64,000 bases of DNA from Fluviicola chungangensis (GTDB taxonomy: Bacteria > Bacteroidota > Bacteroidia > Flavobacteriales_D > Crocinitomicaceae): the NCBI RefSeq assembly GCF_007558725.1, contig NZ_VLPL01000003.1, forward strand, positions 124,001-188,000, given 5' to 3'. Below the pieces are notes generated by a model. The model was not told where the DNA came from and searched no databases. It saw only the letters and a list, made by a program, of their open reading frames with translations. Numbering within the stretch: position 1 is the first letter of the stretch; each line of letters begins with the position of its first letter. This document shows positions 24,621-61,522 of the stretch, piece after piece. The translations under genes were made by a program, and so were the position numbers.

Positions 24621-24661
24621 ATTACCCGGGTAAGTGGTGGATAATCTTACACTTATCCCCA
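24621..24661 (-). repeat. 41-nt conserved element, copy A
   Basis: Read on the minus strand it begins TGGGGATAA, continues GTGTAAGA, TTATCCACC, ACTTACC and ends with the palindrome TTACCCGGGTAA plus T. It matches copy B (61482-61522) at 39 of 41 positions. It lies seven bases after the protease stop and about 50 bases upstream of the rplU -33 box. Confidence 0.85.
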
Positions 24662-24707
24662 AACTGAAGAAAATGTCCTTTACTTAAAGAAAAATAGTTG
24701 TACTGCA

Positions 24708-24736
24708 TTGATTGTTGAAAAACTTTGCTATCTTTG
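24708..24736 (+). promoter_or_regulatory. rplU-rpmA promoter
   Basis: TTG (24708-24710), 18-base spacer, TATCTTTG (24729-24736), 30 bases before the rplU ATG. Confidence 0.6.
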
Positions 24737-24766
24737 CCCTCCAAATTAAATTTTAAAACATCTGTT

Positions 24767-25078
24767 ATGTACGCAATAGTAGAAATAGCAGGGCAGCAAT
24801 TTAAAGTGCAAAAAGACCAAAAAATCTTTGTACACCGTTTAGACGCTGAAGCAGGATCAAAAGTAGAATTTGATCGTGTTTTATTGGTAGACAACGGAGG
24901 AAAAGTGAATATTGGCGCCCCGGCTATCGCAGGAGCAAAAGTTACTGCTCAAGTGAATGATCACGTTAAAGGTGATACAGTTATCATTTTCCGCAAAAAA
25001 CGCAGAAAAGGATATGTGAAAAGAAACGGACACCGTCAGTCTTTTACACAAATTACAATTACAGATATTAAAGGGTAA
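24767..25078 (+). CDS. rplU: 50S ribosomal protein L21
   Basis: A 103-residue ribosomal protein. [18 protein letters not shown] and [17 protein letters not shown] with the final [10 protein letters not shown] match L21 throughout. It binds 23S rRNA in the large subunit. An in-frame ATG at 24725 overlaps the promoter and is rejected. It is followed 37 bases later by rpmA, the usual pairing. Confidence 0.98.
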
Positions 25079-25115
25079 TTCTTCGTCGCGATTAGACGAA
25101 TAAAAATTAGAAAAC

Positions 25116-25385
25116 ATGGCACACAAAAAAGGAGTCGGTAGTTCCAAAAACGGTCGCGAATCTCATAGCAAACGTTTAGGAGTGAAAATTTTCGGTGGAC
25201 AAATGGCAATCGCAGGGAATATTATTATTCGCCAACGCGGAACTGCACACCACCCAGGAGAAAATGTGGGAATTGGAAAAGACCACACATTATACGCATT
25301 GACTGACGGAACTGTTGAGTTCCGTAAAAAAAGAGATAATCGTTCGTTTGTATCGGTAGTTCCATTTGAAACTGCGGAGGCTTAA
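25116..25385 (+). CDS. rpmA: 50S ribosomal protein L27
   Basis: An 89-residue protein. [20 protein letters not shown] is the standard Gram-negative L27 N-terminus, without the cleaved leader of Firmicutes; this tail reaches the peptidyl-transferase centre. [18 protein letters not shown] and [11 protein letters not shown] follow. Co-transcribed with rplU; the pair ends at a clear terminator. No obgE gene follows, unlike in many bacteria. Confidence 0.98.
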
Positions 25386-25407
25386 TCGAATAATATAGAT
25401 TTTTGAT

Positions 25408-25447
25408 AAAGGCGAGTTCCGACAGTTTCGGGATTCGCCTTTTTTTA
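25408..25447 (+). terminator. Rho-independent terminator of rplU-rpmA
   Basis: aaaggcga (25408-25415) pairs with tcgccttt (25435-25442), followed by continuing T residues to 25446. Confidence 0.8.
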
Positions 25448-25503
25448 TTTTAAATTTACCAATTTTGTACCCGACAACAATCGGGAAACTAATTCAATTC
25501 ATT

Positions 25504-26775
25504 ATGTTAGAAATGACTAAAATTCGCGCTGAACGTGATGAGATCATCACTGCACTGAGGAAGCGCAACATCGATGTAACAGAGATTATTGATGCCATTA
25601 TTGCGAAAGACCAGCAATGGCGTTCAGCAAAAACATCCATGGAATCTATTGCATCCGAATTGAATAAGATGGCAAAAGAAATCGGTGAATTTTTCAAAAG
25701 CGGGAAAACCGCGGAAGCAGAAGCTGCAAAAACCAAAACTGCGGATTTGAAACAAGAAGAGAGCCAGCTAAAAGGGCAGGTAGATGCACTTGAAAATGAA
25801 ATCACGCAATTGCTTTACCAAATTCCGAATGTTCCGAATGCTTTAGTGGTTGCAGGAAAAAATGAAGAAGATAATGAAACGGTGGAAGTTGTAGGTGAGC
25901 CGGCTGTTTTACATAAGAATGCACTTCCGCATTGGGAATTGACCAAAAAATTTGATTTGATCGATTTTGAACTGGGAGTGAAAATCACTGGGGCAGGATT
26001 CCCTGTTTACAAAGGGAAAGGAGCAAAATTGCAACGTGCATTGATCCAGTTCTTTTTGGACGAGGCAGAAAAGGCGGGTTACGAAGAATTCATTGTTCCT
26101 CACGTCGTGAATGAAGCCAGTGCCTATGGTACAGGACAACTTCCGGACAAAGAAGGGCAAATGTATCACATGCCGGTGGATGATCTGTATATGATCCCTA
26201 CGGCTGAAGTTCCGCTTACAAATATTTACCGCGATGTGGTGCTTCCGGACGAGAATTTCTCCATTAAAATGACGGGTTACACGCCGTGTTTCCGTCGTGA
26301 AGCCGGAAGTTACGGAGCGCATGTTCGCGGTTTGAACCGCTTGCATCAGTTTGATAAGGTGGAAATTGTTCGCATTGAACATCCGAAAAATACAGACCGT
26401 GCTTTAACTGAAATGGTGAATCATGTGAAGGGATTATTGGAGAAATTGGGATTGCATTACCGAATTCTGCGTTTGTGTGGAGGAGATACCGGTTTTGCTT
26501 CTGCCATGACCTATGATTTTGAAGTATTCTCGGCAGCGCAGGAGAAATGGCTGGAAGTCAGTTCTTGTTCCCGCTTTGATACGTTCCAGGCAAACCGCCT
26601 GAAATTGCGTTTCAAAGGAAGCGACAAAAAGAATTACCTCGCACATACTCTAAATGGTTCAGCTCTTGCTCTTCCGAGAATCATGGCGTCTATTATGGAA
26701 AATTACCAGACACTGGACGGTATTGAAATTCCAGAGGTGCTGCATAAGTACACTGGGTTCACAAGAATAGATTAA
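25504..26775 (+). CDS. serS: Serine--tRNA ligase
   Basis: A 423-residue class II synthetase charging tRNA-Ser. The N-terminal two-helix coiled coil (about residues 1-110, KIRAERDEIITALRKRN onwards), which grips the tRNA long arm, precedes the catalytic core. Motif 2 is TGYTPCFRREAGSYGAHVRG and motif 3 the C-terminal NGSALALPRIMASIMENYQ. HPTAEVPLTN-like MIPTAEVPLTNIYRD is the serine/ATP loop. A GTG- or ATG-extended start at 25465 adds unmatched residues and is rejected. Single gene with its own terminator. Confidence 0.97.
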   Translation: MLEMTKIRAERDEIITALRKRNIDVTEIIDAIIAKDQQWRSAKTSMESIASELNKMAKEIGEFFKSGKTAEAEAAKTKTADLKQEESQLKGQVDALENEITQLLYQIPNVPNALVVAGKNEEDNETVEVVGEPAVLHKNALPHWELTKKFDLIDFELGVKITGAGFPVYKGKGAKLQRALIQFFLDEAEKAGYEEFIVPHVVNEASAYGTGQLPDKEGQMYHMPVDDLYMIPTAEVPLTNIYRDVVLPDENFSIKMTGYTPCFRREAGSYGAHVRGLNRLHQFDKVEIVRIEHPKNTDRALTEMVNHVKGLLEKLGLHYRILRLCGGDTGFASAMTYDFEVFSAAQEKWLEVSSCSRFDTFQANRLKLRFKGSDKKNYLAHTLNGSALALPRIMASIMENYQTLDGIEIPEVLHKYTGFTRID

Positions 26776-27085
26776 CAGGAATCAATACAAAATCAGTTGA
26801 ATCGCACGGTAAGCTTATCGTGCGATTTTTTTATTGACTATTTTAGAGAAGGGCTATGTTAAATATTCATTTATACCGGTGAAATATTCATACAAACAGT
26901 TAATTGACACAACAATTATTTTGTATTTTAAAGACATTTTAGTCGAATTTCGAGGTCAAATTCCTGTTATGAAAAGACCAATCGTAATTTTCTATAGATT
27001 AAGGCAATTCAGCAGTCTTTTTTTGCCAGGTTAGACGCTTCAATTTTTTTTGCGTCATTGAGGTGTTGAGTTTAATAACTGTATT
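26776..27085. other. Intergenic region between serS and the giant surface protein
   Basis: Holds the serS terminator, a small gacgc/gcgtc hairpin near 27034-27056 and AT-rich sequence expected to contain the promoter of the next gene. A possible 66-codon frame (26834-27034) lacks a signal, family features or a good composition and is not called. Nothing else is seen. Confidence 0.5.
26800..26832 (+). terminator. Rho-independent terminator of serS
   Basis: aatcgcacg (26800-26808) pairs with cgtgcgatt (26819-26827); the ten-base loop can itself pair partly (gtaagcttat). Seven T follow. Confidence 0.85.
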
Positions 27086-30000
27086 ATGAAGACTAAAGTG
27101 CCACTCCTTCGTGTGCTGAACTGGTTGTTTGGCGCATGTATTTTTGTCCCCCTAATTTCCAATGCGCAGTATTGCGATTCCATAACACCGACATTTAATG
27201 TCGATTTATCGGCAAGTCCGTATATGACCTGGTTGAGTCCAAGTACGGATCGGGATGGGTTTTGTTGCGGAGCTTCAGCTCCGGATAAATGCCTGGAATT
27301 TGTGATCACATTGAATCCGAATTCTGCAGCCGTAATATTCAATATTGCTTCGGGGGCAGTTCCACCGGGAGCACTCTTCTACCAGATCGATTGCGGAACA
27401 CCTACACCGGTTGGTTCCCCGATCTGTTTATACGGAACCGGTCCGTTTCATCTTACATTTTGTAAACCGGGAAATAATATTAATACCTTTTCCATTGAAA
27501 CCATTCCAAACCCGATATTTGGCCCGAACCTGACATTGGGAGATGGTTGTTCGGATGAATTATGGGTACAATTTTACGATGAAACAACCATTACATGGAA
27601 CAGTATCAATCCGGGAGGATTTGGATCACAAAACGGATTGCTTTCGTGTACAGCAGCTTGCGATACGGTTTTGGCAATAAATAATTCACTGGCCCCTCCG
27701 GTTGTTGATTACCTGGTTTGTGGGATGGCAGCAAACGGTTGTACTACCGAACCAATCTGTGATACGATGACAGTTGTTTTTGCCACCCCGTTAACGGCAA
27801 CCATTTTGGCTCCCGATACAGTGTTATGCCCAAATGAATTAACCATTCCTGCAACAGCTCAAGCGACTGGAGGAACACCTCCATATGCTTATTTGTGGTC
27901 TAACGGTACAAATACAGCTACCGCTGATTTGACAGCCGGAACACATACAGTAAGCATTACTGATGCAACGAACTGTGTTATTCGTCAAGCTACCGTGAAC
28001 GTAACACAGCTAGCTGTTCCTGTTGTTGATGCAGGAGCGAATATAGATGTCTGTTTGAATTATGTCGGGGCAATTACATTAACAGCTACAGCTTCCAATA
28101 CGCAGGGAGTTTTATGGTCAGGAGGTTCGGGAACTTTTTCACCGAGTGATACCTCATTGGTAGTAGATTATTTACCTGGTGCCGGAGAGTTTAGTACAGG
28201 AGCTATCCAAATACAAGTGGAAACCGTGAATAATACCGGATGTCCGGAGGTTTCGGACAGTACTCAAATAGCGTTCAATCCTGTATTGGAATCGGTTTTG
28301 ATAGAAACCCAGGATGTTTCTTGTTTTGGAATGACCAACGGAACAGCGTTGGTAACTATGACCGGATCGACCGGACCATATTCATTTGCCTTTGACGGTG
28401 GAGCTTACAATGCTTCCAATTCAGTCTTAAACTTAGCACCGGGACAACACACGGTCAGTATCTTAAATACCATTGGCTGTGATACACTTCTTTCATTCGT
28501 AATTAATGAGCCGCCTTTGCTGCAGGTGAGTGAAGTAAGCAGAACCAATGTGTCTTGTTTCGGAGGCACTGACGGATCACTTAGTGTACAGGGGATAGGA
28601 GGTTATGGGACTTATTCGTATAGCTGGAATACCAATCCTGTTCAGAATACAGAAACAGCAGTTAGTTTAAGCGCTGGAAATTATATGGTAACCCTTACGG
28701 ACCAAAATGGATGTACGAGCAATTTGAACTTGATTGTCACCGAACCTCTGCCTTTGGCAAATAATTTCACTATTGTTCAGCCAAGTTGTAACGGATTTAA
28801 TGATGGAAGCATCCTGGCTTCCGTTTCAGGTGGAACGACTCCATACGGATACAATTGGAATACAGGCGGGACGGGAACATCCATTACCGGATTGGTTTCG
28901 GGAAATTACTCCGTACTAATTACAGACTCGAATGGCTGTACCTTGAATCTGAATACCTTCGTATCTCAACCAACTCCTTTAGCAATGACAATTTCACCGG
29001 ATACAACGATTTGTCCGGGAAGTCCCATAACTCTTGAAGCACAGGTTAATGGGGGTACCGGGGCTTACACATTTGATTGGACACCGCAGACCGGAACTAC
29101 CAATCAATTAATTGTTTCACCACTTACTCAAACTACATATGCCTGTAATATAACTGACGCGAACGGATGTGTAATCGGATCTTCTACAAGTATTTCCATG
29201 ATTTCGTTAAATCCTGCGGATATCTACGCAAGTATTTCTGAATCAGTTATTTGTTTGGGAGAAGAGGTAGTGATAACTGGAGCTTATACCGGTTCCGATC
29301 AAACGGTTGTACTTTCCTGGACACATTGCACTTCCTGCCCGATTACCCAGAACATTATACCGGGAGCGACAACCACTTATACTATTTTGGCAGTAAATCA
29401 GTGTAACCAACAAATTACTTCGGACGTAACGGTAGTGGTTTCTGAACCGCCGATTGTGAATCTAAATCCGGACTTGGGGACTTATTGCCAGGGAGAATAT
29501 TTTTCCGTTTCGAATTCAGGCACGAATGACCCTTCATGGATTTACACCTGGGTTTTTGAGGATGGAAGTATTTCTCATGACATGATAGCGGTGCATGTAT
29601 TCAATTCTCCCGGTCAATTTGATGTTAATTTGACGATTGTCAATCAGTATGGCTGTCAAAGTGTTGCAGCTGCAAGTGGCACGGTAACGGTTAATCCACG
29701 TGCCGTTGCTTCGTTCACAGCAGATAAAACTGAAGTTACAACGATTGATCCTGAACTTCATTTCACCAACACGTCTCAGAATGCTTCGGAATATGAATGG
29801 CATTTCGGAGACGACGATATGAGTTACGTGACGAATCCGACTCACAGTTATGATACCTATGGTGAATTTGAGGTTACTCTGAATGCAAATAATCAATACA
29901 ATTGTCCGGATCAGGCTCGTTTGGCCGTAACCGTAAAACCGTCTTTCGAACTCTTTGTACCGAATGCATTTACACCTGATGGTGATGAATACAACAATAC

Positions 30001-30229
30001 ATTTATGGCAACGGGATATGGTATTTTGGAGAATGATTTTACAATGGAAATTTATAATCGCTGGGGAGAGTTGATCTTTGAATCCCATAACATGCAAATT
30101 GGCTGGGATGGTTCGTATGGAGCAGGGACAGAACGCGTTCAGGACGGAACATACACGTGGGTGATCCGTTTCAAAGATTTGACAAACACCCTGCATGAGA
30201 GAAACGGGCATTTGAGTTTATTGCGTTAA
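27086..30229 (+). CDS. Giant SprB-repeat / PKD surface protein with type B T9SS C-terminus
   Basis: A 1047-residue exported protein: signal segment (LLRVLNWLFGACIFVPLISNA, QY), a cysteine-rich N-terminal part of about 210 residues, then an SprB-like repeat near 235-310 and three consecutive ones at about 410-630, each with SCFGxTDGS, PYxYxW, GNYxVxxTDxNGC elements. Ig-like stretches and two PKD domains (about 790-960; YTWVFEDGS, YEWHFGDDDMSY) follow. The last 90 residues are the gliding-motility C-terminal domain: FVPNAFTPDGDEYNNTF, YNRWGELIFES, GWDGSYG, DGTYTWVIRFKD. Such proteins are type IX secreted adhesins; SprB itself is the mobile gliding adhesin. No PorP/SprF partner gene adjoins it here. 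Confidence 0.92.
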   Translation: MKTKVPLLRVLNWLFGACIFVPLISNAQYCDSITPTFNVDLSASPYMTWLSPSTDRDGFCCGASAPDKCLEFVITLNPNSAAVIFNIASGAVPPGALFYQIDCGTPTPVGSPICLYGTGPFHLTFCKPGNNINTFSIETIPNPIFGPNLTLGDGCSDELWVQFYDETTITWNSINPGGFGSQNGLLSCTAACDTVLAINNSLAPPVVDYLVCGMAANGCTTEPICDTMTVVFATPLTATILAPDTVLCPNELTIPATAQATGGTPPYAYLWSNGTNTATADLTAGTHTVSITDATNCVIRQATVNVTQLAVPVVDAGANIDVCLNYVGAITLTATASNTQGVLWSGGSGTFSPSDTSLVVDYLPGAGEFSTGAIQIQVETVNNTGCPEVSDSTQIAFNPVLESVLIETQDVSCFGMTNGTALVTMTGSTGPYSFAFDGGAYNASNSVLNLAPGQHTVSILNTIGCDTLLSFVINEPPLLQVSEVSRTNVSCFGGTDGSLSVQGIGGYGTYSYSWNTNPVQNTETAVSLSAGNYMVTLTDQNGCTSNLNLIVTEPLPLANNFTIVQPSCNGFNDGSILASVSGGTTPYGYNWNTGGTGTSITGLVSGNYSVLITDSNGCTLNLNTFVSQPTPLAMTISPDTTICPGSPITLEAQVNGGTGAYTFDWTPQTGTTNQLIVSPLTQTTYACNITDANGCVIGSSTSISMISLNPADIYASISESVICLGEEVVITGAYTGSDQTVVLSWTHCTSCPITQNIIPGATTTYTILAVNQCNQQITSDVTVVVSEPPIVNLNPDLGTYCQGEYFSVSNSGTNDPSWIYTWVFEDGSISHDMIAVHVFNSPGQFDVNLTIVNQYGCQSVAAASGTVTVNPRAVASFTADKTEVTTIDPELHFTNTSQNASEYEWHFGDDDMSYVTNPTHSYDTYGEFEVTLNANNQYNCPDQARLAVTVKPSFELFVPNAFTPDGDEYNNTFMATGYGILENDFTMEIYNRWGELIFESHNMQIGWDGSYGAGTERVQDGTYTWVIRFKDLTNTLHERNGHLSLLR

Positions 30230-30235
30230 TCGAAT

Positions 30236-30261
30236 CCCTTCGGTTTACCGGAGGGCTTTTT
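30236..30261 (+). terminator. Rho-independent terminator
   Basis: Eight-base stem ccctTcgg / ccgGaggg (one G-T pair) with a ttta loop and five T. Confidence 0.75.
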
Positions 30262-30275
30262 GTTATTCCATACTT

Positions 30276-30345
30276 TTTTACCGCAAAGAGAAAGCGCGCG
30301 AAGTTTATCTTCATTCTTTGCGTTCTTCCATTCGTTGCGGTAAAA
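30276..30345. repeat. ccgcaaag/ctttgcg repeat, copy 2
   Basis: ttttaccgcaa (30276-30286) and its exact complement ttgcggtaaaa (30335-30345) enclose agaaagcgcg and ctttgcgttctt. It resembles the copy at 6790-6857. Confidence 0.55.
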
Positions 30346-30380
30346 TTTAAAACCTGGATCATTTTGTTTAATTTAGTCTC

Positions 30381-30908
30381 ATGCTAAGAATCATGTCTTT
30401 TTTCTTACTACTTGGAATTGTCACTTCCTGCGAAAGCAAACTGGGTAAGTTTGAAGAGGATGTGCTCTTTGCCAAATCCACCAATGATTCCGTACAGGTT
30501 TTGCTGCAGCAATTGGATACCAACCAGGTCTTGAAACTGCGGGGAAAATCAAAAAAAATGCTCTTGAATTTCAATATTGAACTGGGAAATGATACACTCG
30601 ACATCGCAACGGCAAGAGAGATTGACGGATTTATCCAAGCCTATCGAGCAACAGATTTTTTCACCACTGAAATAAAACAACTGCGCTTGGCACAGCAGGA
30701 TCAGCGGGAGCGCCTTCAAAAATTACAATCAGACATTGAAAATGCGGCCGGAGATCGCTCAACCTATTATGAACACGTGCAATTTGAGCGAAAGGAAGCG
30801 GAGCAGATCCGTTCGCACAGTTTGATCCTCGAGAAACAATTTATGGATTTTAAACAATCTTACGAGCAATTTAAACCTACATTTGAGCGTTTTAAAGCGG
30901 TACACTAA
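30381..30908 (+). CDS. Lipoprotein with coiled-coil tail, unknown
   Basis: A 175-residue protein with a hydrophobic N-terminus and lipobox-like IVTSC (Cys at residue 17), so a periplasmic lipid anchor is likely. The C-terminal half is a long charged helix (KQLRLAQQDQRERLQKLQSD, ERKEAEQIRSHSLILEKQF). A start at ATG 30393 also gives a good signal. It lies seven bases upstream of the TPR gene, so they are probably one operon. Family not recognised. Confidence 0.75.
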   Translation: MLRIMSFFLLLGIVTSCESKLGKFEEDVLFAKSTNDSVQVLLQQLDTNQVLKLRGKSKKMLLNFNIELGNDTLDIATAREIDGFIQAYRATDFFTTEIKQLRLAQQDQRERLQKLQSDIENAAGDRSTYYEHVQFERKEAEQIRSHSLILEKQFMDFKQSYEQFKPTFERFKAVH

Positions 30909-30915
30909 ATAAATC

Positions 30916-32745
30916 ATGAAACAAGCCTTATTTTTTTGTTGTCTTCTTCTTTCTTTTGCCCTTTCGGCACAAACCAGTACCGACCAGCAATTGGCAAATT
31001 TGTATTACAACAACGGCGAGTTTGATAAAGCACTTCCTTATTTCGAGAAAATCATCACGAAACAAAGTACGAAGTTTGACCAATTGCGTTATGTGGATTG
31101 CCTGGAGAAAACTAACCAGATAAAAGATGCGGAGAAATTCCTGAAGAAGTTGGTTTCAGCTAATTCAAACGATTTCGATTATACCATAGCGTTAGGCGAT
31201 TTGTATGAGCGGACGGAACGCGTTTCACAAACCGAAAAATTATACAACGACCGGATCAAACAAGTTGCTTCAAATGGCTACGAAGTCATTGAGCTCTACA
31301 ATTCATTTATTAAAAAAGGGAAAGTAGAGTGGGGACTGAAAACACTGGAATCCGGAAGGAAAGAATTGAAAAAGAATTATCCGCTTCAGATTCAGTTTGC
31401 CGAAGTGTATTCCCTCTTGGGAAGAACAGACGAAATGATCGACGAATATTTTGATATTTTGGACCAATATCCCAATTATAGCAGCAACATCCAGAATGCA
31501 CTCACGAAACAGATTGATTTCTCGGAAGATAAAACCGGAGTGTATCAAAAATTGAAAGATAAATTACTGGTACGCATCCAGAAAAAACCAAATGATTTTG
31601 TGTATTCCGAAATGCTGATCTGGCTCTTTATTCAAAAGAAAGAGTTTAAATCGGCATTGGTACAAACCCAGGCCCTGGACAGACGAGAGAAAGGAACCGG
31701 AAACCGGGTAATGGATTTGGCAGAAACCTGTGTGGAGAACAGCGATTATGCAACTGCCCGATTGGCGTATAAATACATCATTGATCAAGGCACTCAAAAC
31801 CCGAACTACTATTCTGCCTATGGTGCTTTACTGAATATCCGTTACCGGGAAATTACGATCGAGAAGAACTACCGGCCACAAGACATTATAGAAGCCGAAA
31901 AAGAGTACCGGGAAGGGTTAAAATTGCTTGGTTGGGGACGAAATGCCGTTTACACGGCAAAAGAACTGGCCGAGATCAAAGCCTATTATGGAAATGATGC
32001 GAAAGGCGCAGCTGATTTACTCGATAGTTGTTTGGCAGTTCAGGGCTTGTCCGATATGGAAAAAGCACAAGTGAAAATGGCATTGGCAGATGTACTGGTG
32101 CTTCAGGACGATATTTGGCAGGCATCCCTTTACTACATGCAAATCGATAAGGATTTCAAATTCGAGGCTATCGGTTCCGAAGCAAAGTTCAAGAATGCAC
32201 GTATTTTCTATTATGACGGTGATTTTAAATTTGCCCAGTCGCAACTGGATATCTTAAAAGAATCCACCAGTAAACTCATCGCAAATGATGCAATGAAACT
32301 GTCCGTGCTGATTACGGATAACTTGGGTTTGGACAGCAATTACACCGCGATGTATCAATTTGCGCAGGCAGATTTATTATTGGAACAACACCAGTTCGAC
32401 CGTGCGTTTAAATTGTACGACTCCATTAACAAGGCTTTCCCGGCACACGGCTTGGCAGATGAGATCCTTTTCCGGAAAGCGCAGGCCATGCAATACCAGG
32501 GAAAATGGCCCGAAGCATTGGACTACCTCCAGAAGATCGTTACCTATCACATGGACGACATCCTTTCCGATGACGCAATCTTTACCATGGCGGAGATCTA
32601 TGAGAAAAATCTCCACGACAAAGAAAAAGCTGCGGAATACTACAAAAAGATCCTGTTTGAGTGCAAGGGAAGCCTCCTAACCGTGGAAGCTCGTAAACGA
32701 TACCGTGCACTGCGCGGAGATGTTTCCGATTCGGAGGATTTATAG
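30916..32745 (+). CDS. Exported TPR protein
   Basis: A 609-residue protein: signal peptide (MKQALFFCCLLLSFALSAQ), then tetratricopeptide-type helical repeats along nearly its whole length, clearest at residues 22-55 (QLANLYYNNGEFDKALPYFEK), 85-120, and near the C-terminus (ADLLLEQHQFDRAFKLYDSI; LFRKAQAMQYQGKWPEALDY; FTMAEIYEKNLHDKEKAAEY). It should act as a periplasmic scaffold. Long TPR proteins of this type are common in Bacteroidota; partner unknown. Confidence 0.85.
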   Translation: MKQALFFCCLLLSFALSAQTSTDQQLANLYYNNGEFDKALPYFEKIITKQSTKFDQLRYVDCLEKTNQIKDAEKFLKKLVSANSNDFDYTIALGDLYERTERVSQTEKLYNDRIKQVASNGYEVIELYNSFIKKGKVEWGLKTLESGRKELKKNYPLQIQFAEVYSLLGRTDEMIDEYFDILDQYPNYSSNIQNALTKQIDFSEDKTGVYQKLKDKLLVRIQKKPNDFVYSEMLIWLFIQKKEFKSALVQTQALDRREKGTGNRVMDLAETCVENSDYATARLAYKYIIDQGTQNPNYYSAYGALLNIRYREITIEKNYRPQDIIEAEKEYREGLKLLGWGRNAVYTAKELAEIKAYYGNDAKGAADLLDSCLAVQGLSDMEKAQVKMALADVLVLQDDIWQASLYYMQIDKDFKFEAIGSEAKFKNARIFYYDGDFKFAQSQLDILKESTSKLIANDAMKLSVLITDNLGLDSNYTAMYQFAQADLLLEQHQFDRAFKLYDSINKAFPAHGLADEILFRKAQAMQYQGKWPEALDYLQKIVTYHMDDILSDDAIFTMAEIYEKNLHDKEKAAEYYKKILFECKGSLLTVEARKRYRALRGDVSDSEDL

Positions 32746-32873
32746 TCTCTTCAATATTCACACTCGAACTCACACTTTTCATTCCGGAGTTGTAGGAACT
32801 CGATTTCATTAAGTACGGAAAATCGCAATTCGTTTTTGAAACATTTTGCGCAAATTTGTAAAAATGATCTACG

Positions 32874-33243
32874 ATGAAACTGATTTTTTTGGTCCTGACA
32901 GTCCTTCTTCTGTTGTTGAATTCCTGCACCAAATTCTGAAAGAACGTCACGGTCAAAAGGTCGGGTAGTCAATCCAATTACCGGGGAAGGGATTTCGGGG
33001 GTTCGAGTATTTATGTACAAGGCAACCAACACCAGTTTACCGTCCGATTATAAAATTGTAAACGAGGTCAATACCACTTCGGACTGCTCTTTTGAATCAA
33101 ATAAACCAGGCTTGTCCAAATATTATGTTAAGTGTGATGTTCTGGGAGAAATATTAACCTTTTTCTCCGATAGTTTTCCGAGCTTTACAGAAAGCTTTGA
33201 AAAATGGAACGATCACTCACATCCATCCTTTTATTGTTCTTAA
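32874..33243 (+). pseudogene. Lipoprotein gene broken by a +1 frameshift
   Basis: ATG 32874 encodes MKLIFLVLTVLLLLLNSCTK, a textbook lipoprotein signal with lipobox LNSC, but reaches TGA four codons after the Cys (32937). Skipping one A in the aaa run at 32931-32933 joins it to the next frame. That frame reads NSERTSRSKGRVVNPITGEG, ISGVRVFMYKATN (a start of a carboxypeptidase-regulatory-like beta domain often found just after lipoprotein signals in Bacteroidota) and runs to the stop at 33243. The restored protein would be about 122 residues. Its 3' end overlaps the start of the next gene by 40 bases. Either a real single-base mutation or a sequence error. Confidence 0.7.
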
Positions 33244-36645: not shown

Positions 36646-36646
36646 G

Positions 36647-52573: not shown

Positions 52574-52574
52574 G

Positions 52575-52720: not shown

Positions 52721-52735
52721 AGTCCTGGTATCCAA

Positions 52736-53146: not shown

Positions 53147-53264
53147 TCTTCAACCAATTTTGGATTGCAAAGGTAATAAAAAGCTACGGCTTTTGAGGAC
53201 AGAGTTGCAATCAAGCATTGGAAGAGCCGGAGTATGTTGTTTTCCGGCGAAGGGATTTTCCGGA

Positions 53265-54701: not shown

Positions 54702-54738
54702 TGCTTCATTGTTCGTCCGGTTTGGGACGTGAAGTTAA

Positions 54739-55968
54739 TCATTTGTCTTCACCGGCAATTTCCCTTCCCATGCGAATGTATTCGAACAGATCGGAAGGAT
54801 GCCCGATTTTCTCTTGATTTTCTTTGGTATTTGCCGTTTCCAGGATTTTAGGATCGGTATCCGGTGCGCGTTTGTGACCGGTTCGCACAATGATCAATTG
54901 TTCATCCGGGATTGAAATGATGTACTGTCCTTTAATTCCGCGGCAATAATAAACCGGATGCCCATTGCTGACATAGGTCCAGATATGCAATCCGTAACGC
55001 GTGTTCGGAACACCTTCTTCCGTTGTCATAACCGGATTTTTGACCATTTCATCAAAATAAGCGGCAGGGATTATTTGTTTGCCATTCCATTTACCATGAT
55101 GGATCAATAATTTTCCGATGCGTGCAAAATCACGTGTGGTGCTGTACAAACAGCAAAATGCTTTTTCATCACCATTTTTTTTATCCAGACTCCAAAAGGC
55201 GTTCGACACAGCACCGATGGGTTGCCATAGTCTTTCGGAAGCGTACTGGGATAAGTCCTTACCGGTAGCCTTTTCAAGGATGAAAGCAAGTAACTGAGAA
55301 TTCCCGCTTTGGTAGATAAATTCTTTCCCGGGAGCCCGTTCCACATGCTGGCGCGTCACCAATCCTCTTAAATCCCATCCATAATAGGATTCTGCATTTT
55401 CAGACAAAGGATTTTTCCCGCTTTCCGTCCAATCCAGCCCGGAAGACATGGCAAGCAAGTGCCGAATCGTAATTTTTTCCTTTCCTTTCCCGGTAAATTC
55501 AGGGATATACTTGTAAACAGGTTCGTCCAGGCTTTTGATATCACCGTCTTCCAGCGCCATTCCAATGAGTATACTTACTACCGTTTTTGCAGCAGAAAAC
55601 GAATTGGACACGGTTTCCGGATGATGTTCGTCCCAATAATGCTCGTAAATTACTTGGTTGTTTTTGACAACCAGGAAAGACGATGTGCGCCAGGTATCCA
55701 TGTATTTGAGATCTTCCTTGCTAAGTCGTTCCCCCTGAGGTAAGTTGAAACTCCACGGTTCGCCTTTCTTCGGAGCTTCAACCGTTGCATTGTAAAATTT
55801 ATTCAGATCGTAGATCGTAGGAGAGGTTTCACCTTGCAAATAGGTGTAATAAATTCCCTTGTAGAGGTAAAAACGACCACTTAAAAGGATAAAAATATTG
55901 ACGGATAAAAATAGGATCAAGACAAACCAACCAGTTCGTTTTAACCATTTGAGCAGGGTGCGTTTCAT
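54739..55968 (-). CDS. Serine hydrolase, beta-lactamase class C-like
   Basis: A 409-residue protein with an N-terminal membrane anchor (GWFVLILFLSVNIFILLSG) and a periplasmic serine-hydrolase domain. The SxxK motif is SNSFSAAKTVVSI (Ser about residue 125), followed by TIRHLLAMSSGLDW, typical of class C beta-lactamase/esterase relatives. YQSGNSQLLAF gives the YxN-like motif as Y-Q-S. The likely role is a peptidase or esterase acting in the envelope rather than antibiotic resistance. It ends 37 bases before the glycosyltransferase start and starts two bases from the lipB stop, so the three may form an operon. Confidence 0.87.
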   Translation of the reverse strand: MKRTLLKWLKRTGWFVLILFLSVNIFILLSGRFYLYKGIYYTYLQGETSPTIYDLNKFYNATVEAPKKGEPWSFNLPQGERLSKEDLKYMDTWRTSSFLVVKNNQVIYEHYWDEHHPETVSNSFSAAKTVVSILIGMALEDGDIKSLDEPVYKYIPEFTGKGKEKITIRHLLAMSSGLDWTESGKNPLSENAESYYGWDLRGLVTRQHVERAPGKEFIYQSGNSQLLAFILEKATGKDLSQYASERLWQPIGAVSNAFWSLDKKNGDEKAFCCLYSTTRDFARIGKLLIHHGKWNGKQIIPAAYFDEMVKNPVMTTEEGVPNTRYGLHIWTYVSNGHPVYYCRGIKGQYIISIPDEQLIIVRTGHKRAPDTDPKILETANTKENQEKIGHPSDLFEYIRMGREIAGEDK

Positions 55969-55970
55969 GA

Positions 55971-56669
55971 CTAATGTGCGTAAGTGAATCCGAATTGGGA
56001 GGCTAGTTTTTCTTTTAGGAGGCCTTTTACTTCCTGCATATCGATAGCTCTACCAAGTTCCTGTTGCAAGGAAGTTACAGATTTATCTTCAATTCCGCAA
56101 GGGACGATGTGAGAAAAATAAGAAAGATTTGAATTGATGTTGAAACCGATCCCGTGCATAGTTACCCAGCGGGACGATTTGACACCCATTGCACAAATTT
56201 TTCGGGCAGTTGGCAAAGCCGGATCAATCCATACACCGGTAAACCCTTGTGATCGTTCTCCTTTGATCCCATAATGAGCCAATACCTGGATAACTGCTTC
56301 TTCCAGGTAACGCATGTATTTATGAATGTCCGTAAAAAAATAATCGAGGTCCAAAAGCGGGTAAGCAACCAATTGTCCGGGTCCGTGGTAGGTAATATCT
56401 CCTCCGCGGTTGATTTTGTAAAACTTCGCTTGGTGTTCTTCCAGTCCCTGTTCGTTCAGAAGCAAATGATCTTCCGTACCACTTTTCCCTAGGGTAAACA
56501 CATGCGGATGTTCACAGAATAACAAGTGATTTTTGGTCTCTTCCGAACTGGTTTCATTCCTGCGTTCGATTTTCAGGGCAATGGTTTCCCCAAAGAGCTT
56601 TTCCTGATAATCCCAGGCTTCCTGATAATCGATCAGCCCCAAATCCTGAAAGTGAACCTTTGGTAACAT
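55971..56669 (-). CDS. lipB: Octanoyl-[ACP]:protein N-octanoyltransferase
   Basis: A 232-residue cytoplasmic enzyme that moves octanoate from acyl carrier protein to lipoyl domains, such as that of GcvH encoded at 4739. Motifs: RGGDITYHGPGQLVAYPLLDL (about 78-98), the catalytic lysine in AMGVKSSRWVTMHGIGFNIN and the catalytic cysteine in VPCGIEDKSVTSL (about 178-190). Full family length. Confidence 0.96.
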   Translation of the reverse strand: MLPKVHFQDLGLIDYQEAWDYQEKLFGETIALKIERRNETSSEETKNHLLFCEHPHVFTLGKSGTEDHLLLNEQGLEEHQAKFYKINRGGDITYHGPGQLVAYPLLDLDYFFTDIHKYMRYLEEAVIQVLAHYGIKGERSQGFTGVWIDPALPTARKICAMGVKSSRWVTMHGIGFNINSNLSYFSHIVPCGIEDKSVTSLQQELGRAIDMQEVKGLLKEKLASQFGFTYAH

Positions 56670-56717
56670 CTTATTAGCCGTTGTTTCTGTTTTTGTATTG
56701 ATTATTTGTTCAAAATA

Positions 56718-56766
56718 GATGTTTTAAACATCTTTTCAATTTTACATTTTCAATTCTCAATTAAAC
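56718..56766. repeat. Hairpin plus solo tcttttcaatt-type repeat
   Basis: agatgttt-t-aaacatct (56718-56734) is a perfect 8-base palindrome with one central base. It runs into tcttttcaattttacatttt and caattctcaattaaac. It lies between the MBOAT stop and the lipB start; same motif modules as at 560, 1047 and 5211. Confidence 0.6.
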
Positions 56767-56781
56767 TTGAACCTTTTTATT

Positions 56782-58452
56782 TTAGAACTCCAAATATACG
56801 AAAGGTTGGAATGAATTGGAAGCTGCCTGGTACAGGATGACTACGAAAATAGCAATGATTAACATTTGCAGGACATAATGGGTTTTTACGAAACTGGCTA
56901 CCATAAAATCTTTCCATTTCTGAGGCATCCAATGCAGGAAGAAACCTAAGAGCATGATCAGAAGCGCCGGATAGTACGTGTTTATTAGTAAATGGAATGT
57001 TTCCCATTTATAGTCGGTAAAATGATGGAAAATTCTGTCGAGCATGTTTTCCGGTGCACCTTCTGTTTTTAATCGGAACCAGATGCGTGTAAACGTAATG
57101 AAATTGAATGTCAGCAAGATCTTCCAGAAATGCACGATCCACCAGGAACTCTTTTCATAAGGAGAAACTTTTTTCCAGTGATTGTAAAGAACCAAAGCCA
57201 ACCCGTTCATGGCTCCCCAGATGACAAAATTTTGAGAAGCTCCGTGCCATAATCCACCGAGAATCATCGTAATTAACAAGTTCAAATCCCGATACATGAA
57301 AGTTTTTACTTGCGGACTGATGAGAATGGCGATTCCGTACAAACTCATTAAACCAACATATACGAAAATCAGTTCAAACCAGCCGGTAATGAAGATCAGG
57401 AAAACGAAAATGACGATAATGGCAATGAACGTCCCGATAGTTCCTCTTTTGTTCCCTCCGAGAGGAATGTATAAGTAATCCCGCAACCAGGATCCAAGTG
57501 ATTTGTGCCATCTTCGCCAGAAATCTGCAACACTGTTTGCTTTGTAAGGAGAATTGAAGTTCGGCAGGAGTTCGAAGCCCATCAGTTTGGAAATTCCGAT
57601 TGCAATGTCGGTATAGCCTGAGAAATCCCCGTAAATCTGCAGGGAATATCCCCACATGGCAATCACACTCCAGTAGCCCGGATATGGATCCGGGTTGTCT
57701 ACTATGGCGTTGATAAAATGAGTCGCAATGAAATCCGCCAATACGATTTTTTTGAAAAGCCCTTTCATGATCAGAAAGACCGCCTCACTGAATTCTTGTT
57801 GGCTTAGTTTGAATTTCTGGTAGATTTGTGGAATGAAATCGCGCGCACGGACAATAGGTCCCATAAGTACATGCGGAAAGTAGGTTACGTAGAACGAATA
57901 ATCCCAGAAGTTCTTCACCGGTTCAATTTCCTTCCGGTAAATATCGACCACATAGCTGATGGATTGGAAGGTAAAGAAACTCACTCCGGCCGGAAGCATG
58001 ATGTGGGTTTCGAATGTATATTCACCGAAAATGTTGTTTCCTATTTGAGCGAAGTAATTCCAGACTTCATGCTTTGTATGGAACATCTTATTGAAAGACT
58101 CTGTAAAAAAGAGCGCATATTTAAAGAATCCCAGGAAAAATAAATTAAAAACTGCGGAAAGCGCAATGATCCATTTTCGTCCCAATTTACTTTCAGTCCG
58201 GAAAATCCATTTGCCCAGGAAGAAATTGACGATTACGGAAAGTACAAGAAGTGTTACAAAGAAACCCGAAGTTTTAAAATACAGGAACAAACTGGCAAGT
58301 GTAATAAACATACTGCGCACCAGTTGATGTTTATGCAGGAAACTAAACAGCACCATGAATACCAGGAAGAAAATCCAAAAATCCAGCCGGTTAAATGCCA
58401 GATCATCAGCTGACATATGTGTGAAACTAAAAATGCGGTGCAACGATTCCAT
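56782..58452 (-). CDS. MBOAT family O-acyltransferase
   Basis: A 556-residue membrane acyltransferase with about ten helices, like AlgI/DltB/PatA. The catalytic histidine lies in ILGGLWHGASQNFVIWGAMNG (about residue 393); FWRRWHKSLGSWLRDYLYIP (about 302-321) is the second conserved block. Such proteins move acetyl groups across the inner membrane to be placed on an extracytoplasmic polymer by a partner. Two SGNH-fold proteins encoded just upstream on the same strand, with short gaps, are the natural partners. Confidence 0.93.
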   Translation of the reverse strand: MESLHRIFSFTHMSADDLAFNRLDFWIFFLVFMVLFSFLHKHQLVRSMFITLASLFLYFKTSGFFVTLLVLSVIVNFFLGKWIFRTESKLGRKWIIALSAVFNLFFLGFFKYALFFTESFNKMFHTKHEVWNYFAQIGNNIFGEYTFETHIMLPAGVSFFTFQSISYVVDIYRKEIEPVKNFWDYSFYVTYFPHVLMGPIVRARDFIPQIYQKFKLSQQEFSEAVFLIMKGLFKKIVLADFIATHFINAIVDNPDPYPGYWSVIAMWGYSLQIYGDFSGYTDIAIGISKLMGFELLPNFNSPYKANSVADFWRRWHKSLGSWLRDYLYIPLGGNKRGTIGTFIAIIVIFVFLIFITGWFELIFVYVGLMSLYGIAILISPQVKTFMYRDLNLLITMILGGLWHGASQNFVIWGAMNGLALVLYNHWKKVSPYEKSSWWIVHFWKILLTFNFITFTRIWFRLKTEGAPENMLDRIFHHFTDYKWETFHLLINTYYPALLIMLLGFFLHWMPQKWKDFMVASFVKTHYVLQMLIIAIFVVILYQAASNSFQPFVYLEF

Positions 58453-58470
58453 ATAGGGGTTAAAACGATT

Positions 58471-59799
58471 TTAATTGATGTATTTTCTTTTTTCCATTTG
58501 TTGGAGCCATTTTTCAAAGGCATCGATAAACAGGTCCGCTTTTAAGTGATAGCCCGACGCTGTAAAATGGACCAAATCTCCCCGCATCAGCCCATTTCCT
58601 TTCCAAATGCGTGATGAGCCCAATTCCCCCATGATTCCGTAAAAATCCCACACGGGACATTCGTATTTTTTTGCCAGTTCAATGATGACATCGCGTTCGC
58701 GGGCAACGTTTTTGTTGAGGTATTTCTTCTTGTAACCGGCGTCATTCGGAACCGTGAGCAGAATGGCGCATTCCGGGTTGGCCGCCAATACTTTCCGGAT
58801 CATGGCTTCCAGGTTATTCTTATACACCTCCGGATTGAATGAACTGTAAGGAACGTTGGCATCATTGGTCCCGACAGAAAATGCAAAGAAATCAGGCGGG
58901 GATTCCTTTAATTGTTCTTCGAAGTTCTTATTGGCGAGATAGGTATATAAGCCTGCGCCGTTAATTCCAATGGCAGTGTAAGAAATTCCCGGATAAGCGT
59001 TGCCTAATTGAAATGCGTTGAGTTGCAGATTGTATGGTCCGGCGATCAATCGCGTGAATTGGAGGTTGAATGTGTCTACCGGATCAGTAAAGATTGTTTC
59101 CGTGTAACCCAGGGTCTCATTCCGGAATTTATTGACGATCAGAATCTCATCCGGTCCGAAATTCAATTCATAAGGAAATGGTCCTTTGTTGTGGTATACA
59201 CGCAATCGTGTAAATCCCGGTTTGACATCCGTTTTGTCGTAGTTGAACTTGATTTCTACAATGGAATCGGGAGTTTCGACTATAGCTCCCAATAACCCGA
59301 AGTCAATTCCTTCCGGGCGGTGGTAACTCACGCTTCGGTAAGTGTGCCAGTTATTTTTGGAGTGGAATTCGTAATTCCAGGGATTATTGGTATTTGCGAG
59401 ATCGAAGGGGAAAATTAATCCGCGTTCTCCCGGAAGGTCCAGCCAATGCGTTTGCAAATATGTCCGGATATCGTGTGTATAAACATCCGCCTGGAGGTGC
59501 GATCCACCGATGTGATAAAAGTTCAATTTACAATTTTTATCATTCACCATGTTTCTGAAATCCTGGAAAAGATGCTCCCAATTGGCACTTTGGGGGCTGT
59601 AGAACCGAAAGCAGTTGGTTTCAAAACGGATAAAAGGGTATTGGTGTTTTAAATTCGTATCGAGGTGATGGAAATGGGGATAAATGTAAGTGTCCAGCGG
59701 AGTTTTATCACGCAGGATCTCCACTTGCGACTGACCGGTGCAGGCAATAAGAGAGGCAATTAATAATGCGGTATAAAAACTAAACTTCATCCAGTATTT
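58471..59799 (-). CDS. SGNH/GDSL-family lipoprotein (acetyl-transfer partner)
   Basis: About 442 residues with a lipobox-like LIAC in the N-terminal signal (FSYTALLIASLIAC region; Cys near residue 20). Block I is GGSHLQADVYTHDI rather than GDS, block III FFAFSVGTNDAN and block V DLVHFTASGYHLKADLFIDAF with the catalytic Asp-His. It therefore keeps a plausible Ser-Asp-His triad in a less common form. It sits 18 bases from the MBOAT gene; the start ATG 59799 is six codons inside an alternative at 59817. Confidence 0.83.
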   Translation of the reverse strand, partial: KYWMKFSFYTALLIASLIACTGQSQVEILRDKTPLDTYIYPHFHHLDTNLKHQYPFIRFETNCFRFYSPQSANWEHLFQDFRNMVNDKNCKLNFYHIGGSHLQADVYTHDIRTYLQTHWLDLPGERGLIFPFDLANTNNPWNYEFHSKNNWHTYRSVSYHRPEGIDFGLLGAIVETPDSIVEIKFNYDKTDVKPGFTRLRVYHNKGPFPYELNFGPDEILIVNKFRNETLGYTETIFTDPVDTFNLQFTRLIAGPYNLQLNAFQLGNAYPGISYTAIGINGAGLYTYLANKNFEEQLKESPPDFFAFSVGTNDANVPYSSFNPEVYKNNLEAMIRKVLAANPECAILLTVPNDAGYKKKYLNKNVARERDVIIELAKKYECPVWDFYGIMGELGSSRIWKGNGLMRGDLVHFTASGYHLKADLFIDAFEKWLQQMEKRKYIN

Positions 59800-59823
59800 C
59801 ATTTGAGCAACGAACATGCCATT

Positions 59824-61299
59824 TTATTGAGTCCTTTGTTTCCATTTGACATATTCAGCTGCAAAGGCATCAAAGAAAAGCTGAGATGCAATACTTGCAC
59901 CCCGGTTCGTGAAATGGATGTAATCATTTCCGGCTAATCCTTTTTCGACCCAACTAGGCATGGAATTTTCTCCGCCCATTGCACTGAAAAGATCCCAATA
60001 ACATGCCCCGACGTCTTTTGAAACGCGTGTCATTTCCTGTACCAGGAACGGAAGCATTTTATAAGTTACACGCCCGTTTGCGGCTTGCATAGACATATCA
60101 CTCGGTCCGATTACAATGATTGAAGCAGAAGGACGGAGTTTTTTCAGGGTATGCAATTGTCCTTTGAATTGCTTCGCATACCTGCGCACCGATGAAGAAT
60201 CACTCATATAAGGAACGCCATTTCCTCCGAATTGCATAATGACCATTTCCACATTCAAGTCAGCATACATTTTCGATGCAGAATTGTGATCGATCTTTCC
60301 AAAAAAAGTACCACTTGAACCCCGCATTCCGATATTATCTACAAATACTCCGTAATCACTTTCCAGGGAGAACCCGATAATCGTGGGACTGACGGTTGAC
60401 GAGAATTCATAACGCAATTTCCCCGGTGTAGAAGGAAATTCGAGCGAAAGAACATGGTATTTTCCATCGTTTTCCAGGCTGTCTTCGTGAACCAATGTCG
60501 TTCCGTTATAGACTTTGATTTTACATGGTTTGAAACAGCTGGTGTAGAACATTTTCGCATGGTTGTACGTTCTGGCACGTGAATAAGCCGTTTTTGTGGG
60601 TTCAATTTCAATAAAAGCTTCCTTAAGAGTGGTGGAAGCGGACATTTGCACACTGTCCATTTCCGGAGTAAACCTGGCCGCCGTATTCATGGAACCGTAT
60701 TTCCGTGATTTCAGACTGGTACCGCCAAAAGCGGTATAACGGCTAAAATTGGGAGAGCAGGTTTGCTTGAAGGTAATGGTATTGTATTCGTTTTTGGCTG
60801 GAATTGTTCCCGGTCCGAATCCACCGAATTGCGTTTGCAAGCGTTGACGAATATAAGAAGTCATCCTATCACCTTCAATTTGGGAATCTCCGTAATGCAG
60901 GACACGCACTTTTTTTCCCTTTGCTGCACCATCTAATTTTTCGAAGAACGCATGAAGGGCCTCTTGTCCTTTTTCATTGAATTGAAGGCTGGTAGCAGCT
61001 TCCGCAGTTAATGTCCCGCCGGTAGGTGCGCCCATTTTCCCATCAGATTCAAAGGTGTTTTTGATGGTCGTGTCTGCTGCAATATCTTCTACATTTACAG
61101 TATCAACCTTTACAATTTCGGTAATATCTTTCTTTTCTACCGGTTTAGGTGGTGTCAGGGCGTCATTAAAAGTTAGGAAACGAACATCCATACCAAAAAG
61201 ATCAATAGTATCACCCTTAACCAAAAAACTAATACCACTCAATAATACCAGGATTCCGGCAAGGTAAATAAGAACATGAAAAGGTTGTAATTGCTTCAC
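59824..61299 (-). CDS. SGNH/GDSL-family protein with N-terminal anchor
   Basis: A 491-residue protein with an N-terminal membrane segment (FHVLIYLAGILVLLSGISFLV), a 90-residue low-complexity linker (PPKPVEKKDITEIVKVDTVN) and an SGNH domain. Block I is LHYGDSQIEGDRMTSYIRQ (Ser in GDS, about residue 138), block III VIMQFGGNGVPYMSD, block V NDYIHFTNRGASIASQLF. Likely a periplasmic O-acetyl transferase or esterase acting with the MBOAT protein. It lies first in the three-gene unit, 6 to 24 bases before the next gene. Confidence 0.85.
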   Translation of the reverse strand: MKQLQPFHVLIYLAGILVLLSGISFLVKGDTIDLFGMDVRFLTFNDALTPPKPVEKKDITEIVKVDTVNVEDIAADTTIKNTFESDGKMGAPTGGTLTAEAATSLQFNEKGQEALHAFFEKLDGAAKGKKVRVLHYGDSQIEGDRMTSYIRQRLQTQFGGFGPGTIPAKNEYNTITFKQTCSPNFSRYTAFGGTSLKSRKYGSMNTAARFTPEMDSVQMSASTTLKEAFIEIEPTKTAYSRARTYNHAKMFYTSCFKPCKIKVYNGTTLVHEDSLENDGKYHVLSLEFPSTPGKLRYEFSSTVSPTIIGFSLESDYGVFVDNIGMRGSSGTFFGKIDHNSASKMYADLNVEMVIMQFGGNGVPYMSDSSSVRRYAKQFKGQLHTLKKLRPSASIIVIGPSDMSMQAANGRVTYKMLPFLVQEMTRVSKDVGACYWDLFSAMGGENSMPSWVEKGLAGNDYIHFTNRGASIASQLFFDAFAAEYVKWKQRTQ

Positions 61300-61481
61300 T
61301 TACGTCAAAATTGTGCTACAAAATTAATCCAAATTGGGAATAGACCAATGTTTGTTTATTATCTGTAAGGAATTGAAGATTATTTGATGTATTAATGTGG
61401 GTTGCATCCCGATAGCTAACGGAATTGCGATATTGTGAACAGGCTAATATTTATAAGGCTTTCAGAAGTTTTTTGGCATTC

Positions 61482-61522
61482 TGGGGATAAGTGTAAGATT
61501 ATCCACCACTTACCATGGTAAT
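61482..61522 (+). repeat. 41-nt conserved element, copy B
   Basis: Begins TGGGGATAA, GTGTAAGA, TTATCCACC, ACTTACC and ends in TTACCATGGTAA plus T. It matches copy A (24621-24661) at 39 of 41 positions; the two differing bases are the centre of the palindrome. It lies in the divergent region between the SGNH operon and the YyaL-type gene. Confidence 0.85.

What the first reader, a model, noticed from the sequence alone, without database searches (positions are those of the whole stretch)
24621..61522. 41-nt element with two DnaA-box-like 9-mers and a co-varying palindrome, at 24621-24661 and 61482-61522
Seen: copies 37 kb apart in opposite orientation agree at 39 of 41 bases. Each holds TGGGGATAA (complement TTATCCCCA) and TTATCCACC, both close to the DnaA box TTATNCACA, in inverted arrangement. 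The only two differences are the central bases of a 12-base palindrome (TTACCCGGGTAA versus TTACCATGGTAA), and both forms remain self-complementary. That suggests selection for symmetry or structure. Inference: a DnaA-binding titration or regulatory site, a site for another dimeric protein, or a small mobile repeat.
Basis: partly seen in the sequence, partly recalled or inferred. Interest (0 to 1): 0.75.

Follow-up and report, generated by a model that had tools for sequence, protein, structure and literature searches.

The report
Scattered sites co-evolving with regulator-like protein
The 41-base element is one of 17 copies of a conserved double-palindrome DNA site in this Fluviicola genome, most likely read by a small DNA-binding protein whose gene carries one copy of the site at its end; site and protein appear to change together from species to species.

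Summary
The element is real: one of 17 copies in this Fluviicola genome, none inside a gene, with relatives in other Fluviicola species, often at the same spots. Two inferences fail. The palindrome centre does not co-vary: 7 of 17 are not self-complementary. DnaA is unlikely: its DNA-binding domain is almost invariant in 14 genomes while the second palindrome changes. The unit is two dyads with centres 21 bp apart, P1 TTACCMKGGTAA and a 20-bp P2. In P2, copies within a genome are more alike than orthologous copies (0 of 2000 shuffles as low), but free positions nearby are not homogenised. That points to a shared reader rather than copying. The best candidate is a ~100-aa ArsR-fold winged-helix protein: clear orthologues in exactly the 7 of 14 genus genomes with intact sites, a site at its stop codon in 7 of 7, and a recognition-helix residue that mostly follows the P2 half-site. 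Binding was not measured; the cellular role is open. A paralogue lies among copies of a second dispersed palindrome.

The parts
24621..24661 (+). element copy 1, between the end of a gene with Peptidase_M43 and Por-secretion-tail matches (ends 24614) and rplU (ATG at 24767)
24622..24633 (+). P1 dyad TTACCCGGGTAA (consensus TTACCMKGGTAA)
   Evidence: read
24639..24658 (+). P2 dyad GGATAATCTTACACTTATCC; centre 21 bp from the centre of P1
   Evidence: read
61482..61522 (-). element copy 2, between two divergent genes (59824-61299 on -, weak GDSL-lipase match; 61592-63550 on +, DUF255/thioredoxin-like, called yyaL in this report)
   Evidence: orthologous copy in G001 (L113)
61510..61521 (-). P1 dyad TTACCATGGTAA
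   Evidence: read
61485..61504 (-). P2 dyad GGATAATCTTACACTTATCC
   Evidence: read

Best explanation
Each copy is a compound DNA-binding site: two dyads, P1 TTACCMKGGTAA and a 20-bp P2 (GGATAA-N8-TTATCC here), with centres 21 bp apart, about two helical turns, so that bound dimers would sit on one face of the helix. Shown: copy number, fixed spacing, position outside genes, persistence at orthologous spots, and P2 changing together across a genome while other positions stay free. Its gene ends on a copy of the site, its clear orthologues are found only in genomes with intact sites, and substitutions in its recognition helix accompany changes of P2. Inferred further: the sites act as chromosomal landmarks or local roadblocks rather than as promoter operators, because 7 of 17 lie between convergent genes and no fixed orientation to genes (own genome) or to replication (G013) was seen. 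What binding achieves in the cell is not known.
For: 17 copies, reversed control 0; 0 of 17 inside an ORF of 100 aa or more. Orthologous copies: core identity 0.82, flanks 0.53/0.54 against a baseline of 0.44/0.43 (45 pairs). P2 differences: same genome 2.67 (280 pairs), same place in another genome 4.67 (45 pairs), 0 of 2000 label shuffles as low. P1 centre not homogenised, 278 of 2000 shuffles as low. Orthologues of the winged-helix protein (50-90% identity to the own one) in G001, G003, G008, G009, G011 and G013; matches of 33% or less in the other 7 of 14. Intact sites (R2, E below 1e-6) in the same 7; 1 in 3432 if genomes were independent. P2 overlaps the stop codon or starts within 6 bases of it in 7 of 7; G009's only R2 match is this one. 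Residue 54 and half-site triplet, in the sites tabulated: K with GGT in G000 17/17, G013 11/11, G001 5/8; Q with GAA in G008 9/11; R with TGT in G003 4/4. AF2 model pLDDT 92, ArsR-type fold. A paralogue in G007 and G013 lies among copies of a different palindrome, which is most abundant in those two genomes (24 and 15; see the caveat).
Against: No binding data. The 14 genomes are related, the match of profiles was found by looking, and the E cut was set afterwards: G006 (best E 2.2e-6), G005 and G051 of another genus have weak matches without a detected orthologue of the gene (the gene was not sought in G051). G002 and G004 are only 84% and 83% complete, so absence there is uncertain. G001 has K54/L57 but 3 of 8 tabulated sites with another half-site; G008 keeps 1 GGT and 1 GGA site. 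G009 keeps the gene with one good site. G011 also has K at 54 although its P2 is very different. The pattern for the second family was built from copies in G007 and G013, so its counts lean towards them, and it occurs in G003 (10) and G008 (6), where no such paralogue was found. Other genes with the same distribution were not surveyed.
Confidence: 0.7

Rival explanations
1. A different, unseen protein with the same distribution reads the sites, and the winged-helix gene only happens to carry one.
Against: Site at the gene's end in 7 of 7; recognition-helix changes with dialect; a second gene/repeat association.
Confidence: 0.13
2. A REP-like or other small mobile repeat, spread by a transposase, with no function for the cell.
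For: Short dispersed palindromes outside genes; direct doublets and triplets in G011; an 85-bp inverted pair in G003; two direct copies 598 bp apart in G001; other repeats at some of the same spots.
Against: No Y1_Tnp match in the own genome, which has 17 copies; the Y1_Tnp gene at the conserved place there is a remnant, and its orthologues in 7 genomes are not flanked by the element. Orthologous positions and unhomogenised free positions do not fit recent copying. Other transposase families were not searched.
Confidence: 0.12
3. DnaA titration or regulatory site.
For: Both P2 arms resemble DnaA boxes; in one G003 pair of copies the arms are TGTGGATAA and TTATCCACA.
Against: DnaA domain IV is almost invariant in 14 genomes while P2 changes to GAAGG and GTGGTAAAGC forms.
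Confidence: 0.02
4. An RNA element (pair of hairpins), for example in 3' untranslated regions.
For: Both dyads could fold; 14 of 17 copies have a gene 3' end on at least one side. Fold z-scores -1.8 and -2.1. In one search the share of paired cells (5 of 500 shuffles as high), cells changed on both sides (3 of 500) and the covariation score (9 of 500) exceed the shuffles; a dyad read by a protein dimer would give the same.
Against: 3 of 17 lie between divergent genes and tandem cases occur in both orientations; the number of pairs changed on both sides, 2 of 11, and of pair types is not above the shuffles; copies of a genome share one stem sequence instead of varying by compensation; no Rfam match in the window.
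Confidence: 0.03

Closest known systems
ArsR/SmtB-family regulators (PDB PagR 2zkz, CzrA 1r1u, HlyU 4k2e)
   Same: Fold and size of the candidate reader; dimeric recognition of palindromes (recalled)
   Different: Sequence falls below the curated ArsR cut-offs; many sites, few of them between divergent genes; no neighbouring resistance operon was seen at the loci read
REP elements with RAYT transposases
   Same: Dispersed short palindromes outside genes, often downstream of genes; a gene that carries its own repeat; repeat and protein changing together (abstract and passages of PMC3733652 and PMC2817692)
   Different: Partner is a winged-helix protein; no GTAG head directly before the hairpin; 1-23 copies; orthologous positions kept
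TubR/tubC, ParB/parS, MatP/matS, SlmA and Noc sites
   Same: Several to dozens of sites for a DNA-binding protein, not tied to promoters (recalled); TubR is among the fold matches
   Different: No clear clustering or polarity was seen in G013; no partner ATPase or GTPase was looked for

Membership tests
DnaA box cluster / titration site | matches the DnaA box TTATNCACA | tested here: not met
   TTATCCACC and TTATCCCCA in the window are not exact; G008 and G011 forms depart further, while one G003 pair is exact
DnaA box cluster / titration site | sites stay the same while DnaA stays the same | tested here: not met
   DnaA domain IV almost invariant, P2 not
DnaA box cluster / titration site | binds DnaA | not testable with these tools
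   needs a binding assay
REP element with RAYT | cognate Y1 transposase gene in the genome | tested here: not met
   no PF01797 match at E 0.001 in the own genome, only a remnant
REP element with RAYT | rayt gene flanked by the repeat | tested here: not met
   7 orthologous rayt genes without it; other Y1_Tnp genes of the genus not checked, one excepted (G013b)
REP element with RAYT | GT(A/G)G head immediately before a palindrome | tested here: not met
   GGTAA or GGTAG in most copies, but 5 other bases stand before P2; definition from passages of PMC2817692
REP element with RAYT | usually more than 100 copies per genome | tested here: not met
   1 to 23 copies; the source says 'usually', and its table also lists lower counts
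ArsR/SmtB family (the candidate reader) | winged-helix ArsR fold | tested here: met
   AF2 pLDDT 92; Foldseek prob 1.00, E 1.3e-4 to 8.8e-4 for the top six, all PagR or ArsR-type regulators
ArsR/SmtB family (the candidate reader) | sequence above curated family cut-offs | tested here: not met
   own protein: NF033788 24.5 bits against 55, HTH_20 12.9 against 27
ArsR/SmtB family (the candidate reader) | metal or thiol sensing | not tested
   no cysteine conserved in the 7 orthologues by eye

The most novel reading that the evidence does not exclude
Fluviicola carries several paralogous ArsR-fold proteins, each paired with its own dispersed palindrome family mostly outside promoters, and each able to change its specificity together with its sites. 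These genes share an upstream motif with RAYT transposase, RecJ, YraN, DUF2851 and 23S-IVP genes. If true, this is a transposase-free counterpart of the REP-RAYT system, possibly tied to DNA uptake or recombination.
Probability: 0.27. Interest if true: 0.8.

Novelty: new variant of a known kind. Interest (0 to 1): 0.62.

Why it matters
If the pairing holds, this is a natural record of a DNA-binding protein and its chromosomal sites changing specificity together, with intermediate states in living species, and it joins a regulator-like fold to a REP-like repeat family. It gives a small, testable set: seven proteins, their site dialects, and a few helix residues. It also offers a way to ask what scattered non-promoter sites do for a bacterial chromosome.

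Tried and rejected
DnaA: rejected by the contrast of an almost invariant DnaA domain IV with changing P2. Co-variation of the palindrome centre: rejected. RAYT/REP: followed and set aside because the own genome lacks an intact Y1 transposase and the element does not flank the orthologous rayt genes. RNA element: weak and mixed support. Replication polarity: 12 unique sites in G013, 6 with and 6 against replication, with origin and terminus only roughly placed from 20 GC-skew samples, so that three sites near them could change sides. Gene conversion or recent copying as the cause of homogeneity: argued against by the free positions. Cassette insertion or transposon ends, from the G001 direct pair and the G003 inverted pair: not followed further. 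A competence regulon for the upstream motif: dprA in the own genome has only a 6-mismatch match, so it is not claimed.

Limits: the alignment test used 51 of 53 rows; two with low match scores were dropped (G001 purH, G008 at the L004 spot), one site per locus was taken, and G011 and G009 were left out. It held 8 of 11 sites of G001, 11 of 13 of G008, 11 of 12 of G013 and 4 of 5 of G003 by the R2 counts. In one search the count of the P2 core by regular expression mixes two forms in G003, so only the half-site triplet is used. Gene names for spots (purC, nifS, tpr, mfs and the like) are working labels from my scripts, mostly untested. On print: searches, read as listings, showed no description of this element or pairing; subscription papers and preprints are not held.
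Full report
The observation. Copy 1 (24621-24661, +) and copy 2 (61482-61522, -) are as described. The core does not occur in 100 shuffles of the window. The genome, 4.27 Mb in 19 contigs with the window at C13:124001-188000, holds 17 copies within 3 mismatches of the 24-base core, and none of the reversed pattern. All 17 also carry the upstream palindrome. None of the 17 lies inside an ORF of 100 aa or more; one overlaps the 3' end of the winged-helix gene described below. Read from the mechanical ORFs, 7 lie between convergent genes, 7 between tandem genes (2 in gene direction, 5 against) and 3 between divergent genes.

Where it occurs. A search with up to 3 mismatches found the full form in the own genome and in 3 of 39 relatives, all of the same genus. 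A scan of genome contigs for a looser pattern gave 19 stretches. By title or contig length they belong to Fluviicola MAGs, to a Flavobacteriales MAG that is G008, and to CP034120.1, which has the length of G003 and is labelled Glaciecola amylolytica. No viral contig matched. G013 has the length of the F. taffensis type strain (passages of PMC3236050). A profile from 34 copies of several species (R2) matched 10 of 150 genomes of the family at E up to 0.001: 9 of the genus, own included, and one weak match elsewhere. After removal of reverse-strand echoes, the counts read from that table are G011 23, G000 17, G008 13, G013 12, G001 11, G003 5 and G009 1, with weak matches in G006 (3), G005 (2) and G051 (1). 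The earlier profile R1 at E up to 0.1 also gave one weak match in G002.

Anatomy. The unit is P1, TTACCMKGGTAA, and P2, a 20-bp dyad, with centres 21 bp apart. P2 is GGATAA-N8-TTATCC in most species. In G008 several copies have GGATAAGTGTACACTTATCC. In G011 it is close to GGTAAAGCTGCMGAYWGACC in the same register. P2 has on average 6.3 to 8.8 of 10 complementary pairs by genome, against 2.5 in random sequence. The two bases at the centre of P1 are not held complementary but show a symmetric preference, A/C then G/T. Independent half-sites of a dimer would give that. In G011 all 22 collected copies fit it.

Persistence at orthologous spots. I located genes next to 16 of the 17 spots in the genus with one artificial joined query (its listing was cut, so not every gene in every genome was seen) and read 60 regions at nine of those spots. 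The spot beside valS was followed with its own neighbouring gene. Of the sites tabulated, the one beside the winged-helix gene is found in 5 species, those at priA, purC and purH in 4, and five further ones in 3; ten were seen in one species only. Some spots hold decayed remains, for example upstream of priA in G002 and G009 and beside valS in G002 and G006. Other spots are empty or hold other repeats. Orthologous flanks are near the baseline while the core is 82% identical, so the element is under constraint in the species that keep it.

Concerted change. In the second half of the element, copies of one genome differ at 2.67 of 25 positions on average (280 pairs), orthologous copies at 4.67 (45 pairs) and other pairs at 5.07 (950 pairs). 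None of 2000 label shuffles gives so small a within-genome value. The strongest block is the half-site next to GGATAA: 9.5% differences within a genome, 40% between orthologues. The free centre of P1, 7 to 11 bp away, is not homogenised (57% against 63%; 278 of 2000 shuffles). Copying would have carried those bases along. A common reader that changes specificity explains both facts. A dnaA tree places G008 beside G013, which has the G000 form, but only 3 of its 11 inner branches are well supported.

DnaA. The last 105 residues of DnaA are identical in 8 of 14 genomes and differ at one and the same position in the other 6. A site that DnaA reads should not change in this way.

The candidate reader. 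The spot shared by most species is the 3' end of a gene for a ~100-residue protein. Its clear orthologues are in G000, G013 (90%), G008 (85%), G001 (82%), G009 (79%), G003 (67%) and G011 (50%). The other 7 of 14 genomes give only matches of 33% identity or less. These are the 7 genomes with R2 matches below 1e-6. In 7 of 7, P2 overlaps the stop codon or starts within 6 bases of it, in that species' own dialect, and the start of the same divergent PadR-type gene can be read upstream. In G009 it is the only R2 match. The predicted structure has mean pLDDT 92 and matches ArsR-type regulators. The profile of the 7 orthologues alone finds ArsR-type chains weakly (best E 0.0017). The recognition helix spans residues 54-67. 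Residue 54 is K in G000, G013 and G001, Q in G008, E in G009, R in G003 and K (after N53) in G011; residue 57 is L in the first three and I in the rest. The half-site triplet next to GGATAA is GGT in 17 of 17, 11 of 11 and 5 of 8 tabulated sites of the first three, GAA in 9 of 11 in G008 and TGT in 4 of 4 in G003. No relative of the protein was found in viral contigs or plasmids.

A second association. Paralogues of about 30% identity in G007 and G013 lie among copies of another palindrome. I derived the pattern AAATAGANNNATGTCTATNCGTNTTT from six copies of those two genomes and expected it to be commonest there, although I had not written that down in a call. It has 24 copies in G007 and 15 in G013, against 10, 6, 2, 2, 2, 1, 1 and five zeros elsewhere, and 0 reversed controls. 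Because of how the pattern was made, these counts lean towards the two genomes. Of the 30 copies inspected, 28 lie outside ORFs of 100 aa or more. In G007 three of the copies, two of them used to make the pattern, sit at spots where other species have the first element (valS, yyaL and the spot labelled purC). G003 and G008 have this family without a detected paralogue, so this pair is less clean.

A shared upstream motif. A ~30-base motif lies just before the start codon of the 7 winged-helix orthologues, of 9 paralogues, of 9 Y1_Tnp genes, of a 23S_rRNA_IVP gene in the window and of a small zinc-ribbon ORF. These are 28 of 30 hits (one gene counted twice), some with 3 mismatches; 2 other hits have no or an unnamed ORF, and the reversed control gave 2. 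A weight matrix trained on such copies, the own winged-helix gene included, gives five hits above 24 bits in 1.66 Mb of the own genome: the winged-helix gene, a UPF0102/YraN gene, a DUF2851 gene, recJ (seen as a fragment cut by the end of the stretch) and the IVP gene. The best reversed control is 18.0, and 320 kb of G013 gave no hit. This hints at a DNA-processing or repeat-related regulon. It is a lead, not a result.

What it does. The evidence supports a DNA site read by a protein. It speaks against a DnaA site and against a REP of the RAYT kind by the features tested, and gives little for an RNA element. I think the protein binds both dyads as dimers on one face of the DNA and marks or blocks the chromosome at these spots. 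Binding, its strength, and any effect on expression, recombination or chromosome structure are untested.

Papers. PMC3733652: abstract and passages. PMC2817692: passages. PMC3236050: passages. All other papers: search listings only. Statements on SlmA, Noc, MatP, ParB and TubR function and on ArsR operators are recalled.

Noticed in passing
L325 (G007), L332 (G013); loci L348-L377: Second dispersed palindrome family AAATAGANNNATGTCTATNCGTNTTT around ArsR-fold paralogue genes; 24 copies in G007, 15 in G013.
   Followed up: partly
window 61425-61444; also L113, L191, L121, L123, L328, L330: Another repeat with a GCAATATTGC/GCGATATTG-like palindrome near the yyaL spot, at the valS spot of G008 and G003, and beside paralogue genes in G010 and G012 (by eye).
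   Followed up: no
window 627-660, before the gene 671-1045: Motif shared upstream of winged-helix, Y1_Tnp, recJ, UPF0102, DUF2851 and 23S_rRNA_IVP genes; the window's own case is a 23S_rRNA_IVP gene.
   Followed up: partly
L153:16080-16257 (G000 C13): Remnant of a Y1_Tnp (RAYT) gene whose orthologues lie at the same place in seven relatives.
   Followed up: partly
L030 (G001) 1501-2134: Two direct copies 598 bp apart flank a 166-aa ORF between two genes that have a single copy between them in G013 (L043).
   Followed up: no
L107 (G003) 363-447 and 4325-4409: 85-bp unit with the element in inverted duplicate, 98% complementary arms, 3.9 kb apart.
   Followed up: no
CP034120.1 (loci L164, L173, L174, L176): Record titled Glaciecola amylolytica that has the length of G003, which is placed in this genus; probably a misnamed record.
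   Followed up: no
L327, L334, L335, L344: A further paralogue group (MGRSK...) has TGATATC-type palindromes or parts of them upstream (by eye).
   Followed up: no
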